Shown: one piece after another, positions 4,023 through 6,500 of the stretch | Layout: the number at the start of each line of letters is the position of its first letter | Numbering within the stretch: position 1 is the stretch's first letter | Assembly: GCA_022560555.1 (NCBI GenBank) | Contig: JADFSZ010000097.1 | Span: forward strand, 1-6,722 | From: JADFSZ01 sp022560555 [NCBI: PVC group bacterium] | GTDB taxonomy: Bacteria > GCA-001730085 > JADFSZ01 | Length of the DNA: 6,722 nucleotides | Direction: 5' to 3' | Position numbers and translations under genes: made by a program | The notes under the pieces: generated by a model | Databases searched by the model: none | Told to the model about the DNA's origin: nothing | The model's input: only the letters and a program-made list of their open reading frames with translations

Positions 4023-4049
4023 TTGACATTATCTTAATAATTTGATAAT
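4023..4049 (+). promoter_or_regulatory. Predicted promoter of the pilin-like surface protein gene
   Basis: A perfect -35 TTGACA (4023-4028) is followed by GATAAT (4044-4049; 5 of 6 consensus bases) after a 15-base spacer. An alternative is a poorer TAATGT at 4046-4051 with a 17-base spacer. The ATG at 4059 is only 9 bases past GATAAT, and no Shine-Dalgarno sequence is present, so the transcript would have little or no leader. The short spacer suggests a regulated or weak promoter, or the need for a bound factor. Confidence 0.55.
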
Positions 4050-4051
4050 GT
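4026..4051. promoter_or_regulatory. Dyad (8+8 bp inverted repeat) overlapping the promoter, possible operator
   Basis: ACATTATC (4026-4033) and GATAATGT (4044-4051) are perfect inverted copies separated by 10 AT-rich bases. The left arm shares ACA with the -35 and the right arm contains the -10, so a dimeric DNA-binding protein here would block RNA polymerase. Half-site centres are 18 bp apart, close to two helical turns. Part of the right arm's symmetry comes from the -10 itself, so function is inferred. Confidence 0.45.
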
Positions 4052-4058
4052 TAAACTT

Positions 4059-4241
4059 ATGAGGAACTCAACCGGAGCTTCTCTCATGGCGGCCATCGTC
4101 ATCATGGTTCTAATAGCCACTTTGGGAGGCACGTTTACATTTCTGATGTCCACGCATTATCGGGCTTTGCCGCTCGATACAGACTTCGCCCAAGCCAACA
4201 GCATCGCACATGCGGGAGTGGAGTGGACCTTAAAAAATCTC
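4059..4241 (+). other. Pilin-like N-terminal segment (PilX/MshP-like)
   Basis: Residues 1-61. A short basic leader ends in Gly6, then comes an about 23-residue hydrophobic helix starting ASLMAAIVIMV, and then an amphipathic stretch ending in AHAGVEWTLKNL. The residue at mature position 5 is Ala, not the Glu of major pilins. GspK-type pseudopilins and the PilX/MshP-type minor subunits also often depart from Glu5. Cleavage by a prepilin peptidase is inferred; a plain N-terminal membrane anchor is the alternative. Confidence 0.6.
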
Positions 4242-6500
4242 ATTCCGACTGCGAGTCCCATCCCATTTGCCGGAGGGACATTCAGTGTGACTCAAGATGG
4301 AAACGTATTTACGGTTACCGCACGTCATGGATCTGCCCGTGTCATTTTTACGGTGTCGCCTCCAGCGGTTCTGAGCCTCATCCTCATACCTTCTAACGGA
4401 CCAACAGGAACACTTCTTACGATTCAGGGGCAGGGATTTCAATCAAATGAAACCCTCAACTTAGCCAGCTCGAAATATGGAACGGAACCTCCTGTGCTTT
4501 TGATCAATCTTACCGACACGGGAACATTTGCCGGGGATTCCATATCCGGCACGAACAATGAACTCGTCACAACGGACACAATCGGAAATTTTGAAGTGAC
4601 ATGGGTTGTGACATGGATCACGGATCCCGGGGGAGTGTCGGTCCCCTATGAAATTGATTCCGCCAATGGAACCTCGGACCCGAGTTCGGTTGTCTTCACC
4701 GTAACCCAAGATCCGAGTTATGTCATATTGATTTCGCCCATTTTTGGGTATCCGGGCACAATACTCACTATCACGGGTTTTAACTTATCGGCAAGTACCA
4801 CTTACAACCTTGAAGATGGATTTGGAACCCGTTTAACAACGTTTACGGATGTGGATAACGGAACCTATGATGGCGATGCTGTGGGCGGTCCATCCAATCG
4901 AGATATTACAACAGATATTTCGGGTGGATTTCAAATCACATGGCGGGCCAATCAAGAACCAACAGCAGACTTTGGTGATACCATTGATATCCGGGGAGGT
5001 GGCTTTACGGCCGGGTTTCTTTTTACAGCTTTACGCCCCCTTCTCACATTAACTCCGTCATCCGTGGAAGAAGACGACACCATGCTCGTCCGAGGTGATG
5101 GCTTTTACAGAAACAATGCTGCAGAAACAGGTTTTCGTATGGATTATGACTCGGGTCCTGACCGGCTTGAAAATATGTTGGATACATCCACATTTTTCGG
5201 CGATAGTATTTCCGGCGGAGCCAATGATCGTGTCAATGCAAATGCGGACGGTAAATTTGAATTTGTTTGGACGGTTAATTCATCGAACCTTAGAAAGGGA
5301 TCAACCATCTCGTCCGGAACCCACAATATCGATAAAAAAGGCGGCGGTCAAGATCCGGCCGCGGCTGAATTTACGTTTACTAAACCCGGCGTTATTCGTC
5401 AGCTGACAATAGCCATTACAGGAGAAGTACAAGCCCTTCAAGTTGGATTCTTGAATGACGATTCCGGGGACACGCAGTTTCCGGATGTGGCCATTGGGAC
5501 AAAAACAGGCAAAAATTCCGGCAGGGTTGAGATTTGGCTCAATACCGCGGATGAAACCGGTAACATCACGTCTCATAGCACATTCACTGCGAACAACAGT
5601 GTCAATGCCCTAGCTCTTTCAGCCATTCAAGGGGGTGATACCGACGACGATATCATGGTCGGGAACAACGCTAAGGGATCCAATGCCATTGAAATTTGGA
5701 TCAATGATGGGACAGGAACTTTTACAGAAGATAACAACAGTCCTTACAATGCCAATAAAAAAGTTCTTGCGGTAACCCATGCCGACATGGATGGTGACGA
5801 TACGGATGATCTGATCTATGGGGACGATGATAAGAAAATTACGGTCCGACTTCATACGGGGAATGCTGATTTTGGCTCCGCATTAACAGTGTCACTTAAT
5901 AAAAAACCCTTAGCCCTTGCGGCAGGCAATATCTCTGAAGACACAAATGGAGACATAGATATTATGGCTGGCACTGATGATAAAAACGGCGAAATTAAAG
6001 TGACCGAAAACGATGGCGCGGGAAATCTCAGTGAGGAAAGCAGCAGCCCCTACAATACCTCCGGTAAACAGGTGCGAGCCATAGATGCGGGTGATATGAA
6101 TGCGGACGGATTTATTGATATCGTTGTTGGGACACGCAACGGAGCTGCGAATCGCGAAATCGAAGTCTGGCTCAACAATGGAGATGGGACTTTTACGAAG
6201 GATGATGATTATGAAATTGCATTAAAAATTAATGCATTGAAGCTTGGAGACATAGATAATGATGGTGACTTGGACGTAGTTATTGGCGTTGAAATCCCGG
6301 GAAACACGGGGCAGGTGGAAGTATGGCTGAACGATGGCAGCGGAAATCTTACAGAAGACACGAACAGCCCCTTTGCGGTCGATGGGAAAGTCCTTGCTCT
6401 TGATCTTGGCGATATGGATCAAGATGATACAATCGATATCGTGGCAGGAACAAAAACAGGAGGATCAACAGGCAATATTGTCATTTTATTTTTAGATTAA
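4059..6500 (+). CDS. Pilin-like protein with TIG-like modules and a seven-bladed VCBS/FG-GAP propeller
   Basis: 813 residues, not recognised as a named protein; predicted to be exported and exposed. Residues 1-6 (MRNSTG) followed by a hydrophobic helix (about 8-30) resemble a prepilin leader cut after Gly6. ANSIAHAGVEWTLKNL (46-61) matches the 'A..AGxEwAL' pattern of PilX/MshP-type minor pilins. A short beta region (about 68-100) follows. Three TIG/Ig-like modules cover about 104-216, 220-326 and 327-442. Residues 446-813 hold seven VCBS/FG-GAP repeats with integrin-type calcium loops, best at 679-687 (DMNADGFID), 731-739 (DIDNDGDLD) and 785-793 (DMDQDDTID). There are no cysteines, and it is rich in Asp, Asn and Gly. 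ATG 4059 is chosen because it keeps the prepilin-like leader. ATG 4086 has GGAG 8 bases upstream but would start inside the membrane helix. Likely a pilus-tip or surface adhesin-like protein; no pilus machinery lies beside it. Confidence 0.85.
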   Translation: MRNSTGASLMAAIVIMVLIATLGGTFTFLMSTHYRALPLDTDFAQANSIAHAGVEWTLKNLIPTASPIPFAGGTFSVTQDGNVFTVTARHGSARVIFTVSPPAVLSLILIPSNGPTGTLLTIQGQGFQSNETLNLASSKYGTEPPVLLINLTDTGTFAGDSISGTNNELVTTDTIGNFEVTWVVTWITDPGGVSVPYEIDSANGTSDPSSVVFTVTQDPSYVILISPIFGYPGTILTITGFNLSASTTYNLEDGFGTRLTTFTDVDNGTYDGDAVGGPSNRDITTDISGGFQITWRANQEPTADFGDTIDIRGGGFTAGFLFTALRPLLTLTPSSVEEDDTMLVRGDGFYRNNAAETGFRMDYDSGPDRLENMLDTSTFFGDSISGGANDRVNANADGKFEFVWTVNSSNLRKGSTISSGTHNIDKKGGGQDPAAAEFTFTKPGVIRQLTIAITGEVQALQVGFLNDDSGDTQFPDVAIGTKTGKNSGRVEIWLNTADETGNITSHSTFTANNSVNALALSAIQGGDTDDDIMVGNNAKGSNAIEIWINDGTGTFTEDNNSPYNANKKVLAVTHADMDGDDTDDLIYGDDDKKITVRLHTGNADFGSALTVSLNKKPLALAAGNISEDTNGDIDIMAGTDDKNGEIKVTENDGAGNLSEESSSPYNTSGKQVRAIDAGDMNADGFIDIVVGTRNGAANREIEVWLNNGDGTFTKDDDYEIALKINALKLGDIDNDGDLDVVIGVEIPGNTGQVEVWLNDGSGNLTEDTNSPFAVDGKVLALDLGDMDQDDTIDIVAGTKTGGSTGNIVILFLD
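4368..5384 (+). repeat. Three TIG/Ig-like modules within the surface protein
   Basis: Residues about 104-216, 220-326 and 327-442. Each module opens with a TIG-type strand pair, such as PTGTLLTIQGQGF (115-127) and YPGTILTITGFNL (231-243); the third (TMLVRGDGF, 341-349) is degenerate. Each also carries a shared mid-module block beginning DTGTFAGDSISG (153), DNGTYDGDAVGG (266) and DTSTFFGDSISG (375). That block is followed by a D..G.FE.TW.V strand. The copies are about 110 residues apart. They most likely act as a stalk between the pilin-like helix and the propeller. Confidence 0.7.
5427..6497 (+). repeat. Seven VCBS/FG-GAP repeats (one beta-propeller)
   Basis: Repeat starts at residues 457, 515, 569, 617, 672, 724 and 778 (nucleotides 5427, 5601, 5763, 5907, 6072, 6228, 6390). 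A typical unit runs V.AL..GD.D.DG..DIV.GT....G.IEVWLN.G.GT. The first six are 48-58 residues long. The last is only 36 and ends the protein. The strand preceding repeat 1 (about 446-456, IRQLTIAITGE) can supply its missing outer strand, closing the ring. Calcium loops are best in repeats 5, 6 and 7 and degenerate in 1, 2 and 4. The copies have diverged at DNA level, so the duplication is old. Confidence 0.8.

What the first reader, a model, noticed from the sequence alone, without database searches (positions are those of the whole stretch)
4059..6500. Single-chain fusion of a minor-pilin helix to a TIG stalk and a calcium-type propeller
Seen: a prepilin-like N-terminus with a PilX/MshP-style AHAGVEWTL block, three TIG-like modules and seven FG-GAP repeats in one cysteine-free 813-residue chain. 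Known: in type IV pili the tip adhesin PilY1/PilC has a calcium-binding propeller and works with separate minor pilins such as PilX. Inference: this protein could combine both roles, a self-anchoring pilus-tip adhesin made of one polypeptide. Its own regulated-looking promoter and the lack of adjacent pilus genes suggest an orphan, exchangeable tip module.
Basis: partly seen in the sequence, partly recalled or inferred. Interest (0 to 1): 0.68.

Follow-up and report, generated by a model that had tools for sequence, protein, structure and literature searches.

The report
Pilus-cap helix fused to integrin-like propeller
A little-known bacterium encodes one protein that starts like the cap subunit of a type IV pilus and ends in a seven-bladed propeller predicted to fold like the head of a human integrin, so it may carry its own sticky or sensing head to a filament tip; this has not been tested in the laboratory.

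Summary
Window 4059-6500 is an intact, cysteine-free 813-residue ORF. Residues 1-103 look like a Glu5-less minor pilin (PilX/GspK/MshP type): a profile made from PilX_N proteins scores it 25.9 bits, 0 of 3000 shuffles reach that, and 10 of 11 N-terminal matches elsewhere sit beside pilin genes. Pfam PilX_N itself does not call it. Residues 104-445 are three mutually homologous TIG-like modules. Residues 439-813 are predicted (pLDDT 80.5, pTM 0.85) as a seven-bladed FG-GAP propeller like that of integrin alpha; no PilY1-family match. The genome has many type IV filament parts, but no prepilin peptidase or PilY1 was found in this 91.5%-complete assembly. I read it as a modular pilin of the Glu5-less cap type that carries its own propeller to a filament tip. 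Comparable fusions: PilX_N + FG-GAP (a Gemmatimonadetes MAG), PilX_N-like + PQQ propeller (two genomes of one family), N_methyl pilin + SdrD_B + FG-GAP (one genome). They are rare: 0 of 57 other large PilX/GspK-type ORFs had FG-GAP. Modular pilins are a known kind; my searches found no paper on this version. Tip position, metal binding and adhesion are inferred. The promoter claim is weak.

The parts
4059..4076 (+). Leader peptide, residues 1-6 (MRNSTG), ending in the conserved Gly
   Evidence: Gly6 is invariant in the 17-row N-terminal alignment. An alternative in-frame ATG at 4086 has GGAG eight bases before it, while 4059 has no Shine-Dalgarno (sequence, my reading); likeness over residues 6-9 favours 4059.
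4077..4253 (+). Pilin-type N-terminal helix, residues 7-65; mature position 5 is Ala, not Glu; ends in the AHAGVEWTL block
   Evidence: helix inferred from homology; not modelled
4242..4367 (+). Short beta part of the pilin module, residues 62-103
   Evidence: Aligns with pilin-like L073, L077 (two copies) and L071; 0 of 1000 shuffles reach each score; these partners had been picked by likeness to the query
4368..4703 (+). TIG-like module 1, residues 104-215
   Evidence: Pfam TIG, weak; repeat scores
4704..5051 (+). TIG-like module 2, residues 216-331
   Evidence: Repeat scores
5052..5393 (+). TIG-like module 3, residues 332-445
   Evidence: Repeat scores
5373..6497 (+). Seven-bladed FG-GAP propeller, residues 439-813; the first strands probably complete the last blade (inferred)
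   Evidence: FG-GAP_3, blades, model pLDDT 80.5 and pTM 0.85, integrin alpha Z 35.0
4023..4051 (+). Promoter-like TTGACA-17-TAATGT, ending 7 bases before the start codon; possibly a leaderless transcript (inferred)
   Evidence: the consensus scan did not list this site

Best explanation
The gene encodes a modular minor pilin of the Glu5-less (cap) type. The first ~103 residues insert in the inner membrane as a prepilin and are cut after Gly6 (inferred). The helix joins a type IV filament as its first, outermost subunit, the place given to PilX or GspK in known systems (inferred from literature). Three Ig-like TIG modules form a stalk of perhaps 12 nm (inferred), which presents a seven-bladed integrin-alpha-like propeller beyond the tip. 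The propeller probably binds metal and a surface, polymer or protein ligand, so one polypeptide does what PilX plus the separate PilY1 do elsewhere. Shown here: the ORF, the pilin-type N-terminus, the repeats and the predicted propeller fold. Inferred: processing, filament assembly, tip position, ligand and metal binding.
For: A profile from 16 proteins found with PF14341 (10 over and 6 under that family's cut-off, one of them from this genome) scores the N-terminus 25.9 bits; 0 of 3000 segment-preserving shuffles reach that (best 17.6). Among 159 ORFs from 20 fetched stretches of the same genome it ranks fifth, behind four PilX/GspK-like proteins (one of them a profile row) and above the classical pilins among them. 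In 386 genomes, 13 had a match at E <= 0.01, its own included; of the 13 other match rows 11 start at query residues 2-5, and 10 of these 11 have pilin-like neighbours, the eleventh lying at a contig end (read by eye). Propeller: pTM 0.85; integrin alpha6beta1 Z 35.0, rmsd 2.7, 336 aligned. The genome has PilM, PilN, secretin, T2SSF and T2SSE genes in one operon with a PilX-like gene, which is also the weak N-terminal paralogue (E 0.27). Comparable fusions: L083 PilX_N + FG-GAP (both over cut-off), L084/L085 PilX_N-like (under cut-off) + PQQ propeller, L087 N_methyl + SdrD_B + FG-GAP. Literature: PilX and GspK lack Glu5 and are placed at the tip (PMC7541494, passages); tip complexes are capped by a subunit lacking Glu5 (PMC10191384, passages); Glu5 is dispensable for processing (PMC4471445, passages).
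Against: No curated pilin family reaches its cut-off; a PF14341 search of the same genome at E <= 1 listed two places, neither of them this gene. No prepilin peptidase found in the assembly. No orthologue of the whole chain: in 97 other genomes all matches lay in the propeller, so conservation cannot be tested. The gene stands alone on its contig. Of 57 other large PilX/GspK-type ORFs none had an FG-GAP head. Two genomes with comparable fusions, G105 and G135, have weak PilY1-family matches under the cut-off (E 0.09 and 0.004), so replacement of PilY1 is not shown. The second possible start codon would remove the leader. The full chain could not be folded (pLDDT 31.9). In the structure comparison WD-repeat propellers tie with integrins (Z 34.4 and 34.2 against 35.0).
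Confidence: 0.62

Rival explanations
1. It is a pseudopilin-type cap (GspK-like) of a type II secretion pseudopilus, so that the propeller acts in the periplasm or at the secretin as a substrate adaptor and not as a surface adhesin.
For: The best, though weak, NCBIfam match of the N-terminus is GspK (E 0.069); the genome has two GspK-like genes in pilin clusters.
Against: No helix-hairpin-helix or other GspK domain was found after residue 62; the gene is in neither cluster.
Confidence: 0.17
2. It is an ordinary N-terminally anchored FG-GAP/TIG surface or periplasmic protein whose helix only resembles a pilin.
For: No curated pilin hit; no prepilin peptidase seen; gene not in a pilus operon; a possible internal start with a better ribosome site.
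Against: Profile test and genome ranking; likeness runs past the helix into the beta part; N-terminal matches elsewhere sit in pilin operons.
Confidence: 0.15
3. It is a modular pilin, but built into the filament shaft or kept in the membrane pool, with the propeller used for aggregation and not at the tip.
For: Some minor pilins are spread along filaments (PMC10191384, passages).
Against: Absence of Glu5 marks the cap subunit in the cited papers; the large head is hard to pack in the shaft (inference).
Confidence: 0.06

Closest known systems
Modular pilins (Streptococcus sanguinis PilB/PilC; Raynaud et al. 2021, PMC8179133, passages read)
   Same: One chain with a pilin module and a grafted binding module; a tip position is proposed
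   Different: Their survey used the N-terminal motif IPR012902 (corresponds to Pfam N_methyl, recalled), which this N-terminus does not match; here the pilin part is Glu5-less and the head is a TIG stalk plus FG-GAP propeller. Their data set was not read.
PilX + PilY1 tip complex (PMC7541494, PMC13190605, passages)
   Same: A Glu5-less pilin next to a propeller protein, predicted order PilX then PilY1 at the tip
   Different: Two separate chains with predicted beta-strand complementation; [quoted passage not shown]
PilX_N + FG-GAP protein of Gemmatimonadetes MAG J002 (L083/L091, 822 aa)
   Same: Same order: Glu5-less pilin N-terminus, then FG-GAP repeats
   Different: Sits in a minor-pilin operon; no TIG match by Pfam at E <= 0.1; diverged sequence
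N_methyl + SdrD_B + FG-GAP protein L087 (979 aa)
   Same: Pilin N-terminus, Ig-like stalk, FG-GAP repeats in one chain
   Different: Classical N_methyl start; lies next to a PilX-like gene
Integrin alpha headpiece propeller
   Same: Predicted fold over 336 residues, Z 35.0
   Different: About 12-16% identity; WD-repeat propellers tie in Z; no integrin system is implied

Membership tests
Type IV pilin superfamily (class III signal peptide) | Short hydrophilic leader ending in Gly, then a ~21-residue hydrophobic stretch | tested here: met
   MRNSTG then mostly hydrophobic residues 7-31; Gly6 invariant in 17 rows
Type IV pilin superfamily (class III signal peptide) | Glu at mature position 5 (almost invariable in bacterial pilins) | tested here: not met
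   Ala; no row of the 17-row alignment has Glu there; the cited papers report the same lack for PilX and GspK caps
Type IV pilin superfamily (class III signal peptide) | Prepilin peptidase in the genome | tested here: inconclusive
   Not found in a 91.5% complete assembly by family or by the relative's protein (which had no positive control); found in the one relative of the same phylum
PilX_N (PF14341) | Score over the curated cut-off | tested here: not met
   No match of residues 1-103 at E <= 10, so not filed as PilX_N; a profile of PF14341 matches does recognise it
GspK (NF037980) | Score over the curated cut-off | tested here: not met
   12.7 bits against 130
PilY1/PilC (PF05567) | PilY1 propeller domain | tested here: not met
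   No PF05567 match to the protein at E <= 10
FG-GAP integrin-type propeller | FG-GAP repeats and seven-bladed fold | tested here: met
FG-GAP integrin-type propeller | Calcium bound in the blade loops | not testable with these tools
   Motifs in 4 of 7 blades; no metal assay
Modular pilins | Pilin module plus extra non-pilin domain | tested here: met
   By architecture
Modular pilins | N-terminal IPR012902 motif, as used in the published survey | tested here: not met
   Pfam N_methyl does not match, so it would lie outside that survey

The most novel reading that the evidence does not exclude
Glu5-less pilin caps have been fused to beta-propellers of different families (FG-GAP, PQQ type) more than once in separate bacterial lineages, giving single-chain filament tips that replace the PilX-PilY1 pair; the window protein is one with an integrin-like head on a TIG stalk.
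Probability: 0.35. Interest if true: 0.7.

Novelty: new variant of a known kind. Interest (0 to 1): 0.5.

Why it matters
How a type IV pilus carries an adhesin at its tip is studied largely with PilY1, a separate protein held by minor pilins. A cap pilin with its own propeller in one chain would show that the tip can be a single gene, and would give a simple construct to test tip delivery. It also suggests that Glu5-less modular pilins escaped the published survey, which searched for the classical motif.

Tried and rejected
Rejected: a PilY1-type propeller (no PF05567 match; PilY1 structures are not among the 50 rows shown, which excludes nothing). Rejected: foreign DNA by composition (gene GC 0.47, contig upstream of it 0.45, 20 fetched stretches of the genome 0.43). 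Not convincing: the regulated promoter. Led nowhere: full-chain fold from one sequence (pLDDT 31.9); scans with the whole protein in genome contigs and with the N-terminus or the propeller alone in viral contigs, none confirmed; plasmid search (6 records, propeller part only).

Rows dropped: two of 13 non-own rows lie in the TIG region (L078, L081), in genes without a pilin start, and were left out of the N-terminal count. For the profile I used 16 of the loci and left out L106 (match over 22 positions only) and those with E above 0.006. For the survey of heads I took, from the rows listed, the 57 with an open frame of 455 aa or more that were not in A1; that list was cut, so this is a partial sample. 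Six of the 57 were first read in a wrong frame and taken again. Pfam found FG-GAP in 0 of the 57 and Kelch in 1, which I did not identify: 30 of the 57 were rescanned singly without finding it. Ten PilX_N proteins showed no propeller (four of them are also among the 57). The A1 search contains the window sequence, so its own rows match by construction.

Full report
Setting. The window is a whole contig (6722 bases) of a 1.66 Mb assembly in 222 contigs, 91.5% complete. Of the 97 other genomes listed only one, G001, is marked as the same phylum. The finding's ORF runs 4059-6500, 813 residues, no cysteine. Its neighbours look like housekeeping genes on the other strand (my reading of the translations: ileS, mtnP, yggU, yggT, proC, yggS and a comF-like end; names recalled, not searched). 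It stands alone.

N-terminus. Pfam gives nothing for residues 1-103 at E <= 10; NCBIfam gives GspK at E 0.069, in register, and one unrelated viral family at 0.16. A search of 386 genomes with residues 1-445 gave 14 rows in 13 genomes, one of them the window. Of the other 13 rows, 11 begin at query residues 2-5. The proteins behind these 11 are PilX-, MshP- or GspK-like, and 10 of them have pilin-like neighbours; the eleventh starts at a contig end (by eye). Gly6 is invariant in a 17-row alignment and no row has Glu at mature position 5. To lessen selection by my own query I took 16 proteins found with Pfam PilX_N (10 over the cut-off, 6 under it, one from this genome), built a profile, and scored the window: 25.9 bits; 0 of 3000 shuffles that keep leader, hydrophobic part and rest apart reach it (best 17.6). 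Among 159 ORFs of 20 stretches of the genome it ranks fifth, behind four PilX/GspK-like proteins, one of which is a profile row. The likeness goes on into the short beta part (0 of 1000 shuffles for each of four comparisons; the partners had been picked by likeness).

Middle and C-terminus. Three modules of about 110 residues are homologous to each other; Pfam sees TIG weakly. The last 375 residues hold seven repeats. With 12 FG-GAP relatives from viral contigs as alignment the propeller is predicted at pLDDT 80.5, pTM 0.85. Foldseek ranks KICSTOR, integrin alpha and ADAM22-LGI1 complex structures first. VIA-align puts integrin alpha6beta1 and alpha4beta7 first, Z 35.0, over 336-337 residues; WD-repeat propellers follow at 34.4 and 34.2, which counts as a tie. 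So the seven-bladed fold class is firm, and the integrin label rests on the FG-GAP repeats as well. The single-sequence fold of the whole chain failed, so the joint arrangement of the parts is not modelled.

Genome context. There are 25 N_methyl matches and 9 T2SSE-family matches over the cut-off. One operon carries PilM, PilN, secretin, T2SSF, a PilX-like gene, pilin-like genes and an MshEN-type ATPase. No prepilin peptidase was found by family (the family rings in 12 of 14 control genomes) or by the relative's protein; the relative has one. No PilY1 match in this genome at E <= 0.1, but none of the 14 control genomes passed that family's cut-off either, so the sensitivity of that test is not shown; of the 12 genomes searched one passed the cut-off (G235) and two had weak matches (G105, G135).

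Similar fusions. L083/L091, a Gemmatimonadetes MAG, has PilX_N (35.9 bits, cut-off 25.5) plus FG-GAP (36.7 bits, cut-off 22.1) in 822 residues, beside pilin genes. L084 and L085, two genomes of one family, have a PilX_N-like start (24.1 and 21.3 bits, under the cut-off) plus a PQQ-type propeller (PQQ_2 E 9e-28 and 9e-16) beside pilin-like genes; the second is cut by a contig end. L087 has N_methyl, SdrD_B and FG-GAP in 979 residues beside a PilX-like gene. These are few: of 57 other large PilX/GspK-type ORFs none had an FG-GAP head and one had Kelch repeats.

Literature. Modular pilins are described (PMC8179133; passages read): more than 1,200 proteins and 264 architectures found through IPR012902. 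Glu5-less PilX and GspK are placed at the tip (PMC7541494; passages), a review says tip complexes are capped by a subunit lacking Glu5 (PMC10191384; passages), and another that Glu5 is dispensable for processing (PMC4471445; passages). PilX and PilY1 are predicted to share beta strands (PMC13190605; passages). Searches for pilin with FG-GAP, with and without TIG domain, found no paper; VCBS with prepilin found one (listing only); FG-GAP repeat with type IV pil found two (listing only); minor pilin with propeller domain and fused found only PMC8179133. These searches cover open-licence PMC papers only.

Judgement. A modular pilin of the Glu5-less cap type with an integrin-like head is the best reading (0.62). 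It is a new variant of a known kind.

Noticed in passing
L012:997-2916: A flagellin (Flagellin_N and Flagellin_C) with an FG-GAP propeller in the middle, 639 aa; genome G009 has further ORFs of similar size that match the propeller, not checked for flagellin parts. A parallel graft of the same fold on another filament.
   Followed up: partly
L083:7239-12635: N_methyl pilin-like protein of 1798 aa with Big_7 domains, next to the PilX_N + FG-GAP gene
   Followed up: no
L086:8390-10270: 626-aa pilin-like protein with repeated modules at the mshP-like place of an MSHA-like operon (operon naming recalled); no Pfam match
   Followed up: no
L055:4184-6043: 619-residue PilX-like protein of the same genome in a pilin cluster, with a weak bactofilin match in the head
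   Followed up: partly
L194:43-1920: Pilin-like protein (weak N_methyl) with W-rich repeats that look propeller-like by eye; no Pfam domain in the head
   Followed up: no
window 4074-4086: GGAG eight bases before an in-frame ATG at 4086; if used, the leader peptide would be lost
   Followed up: partly
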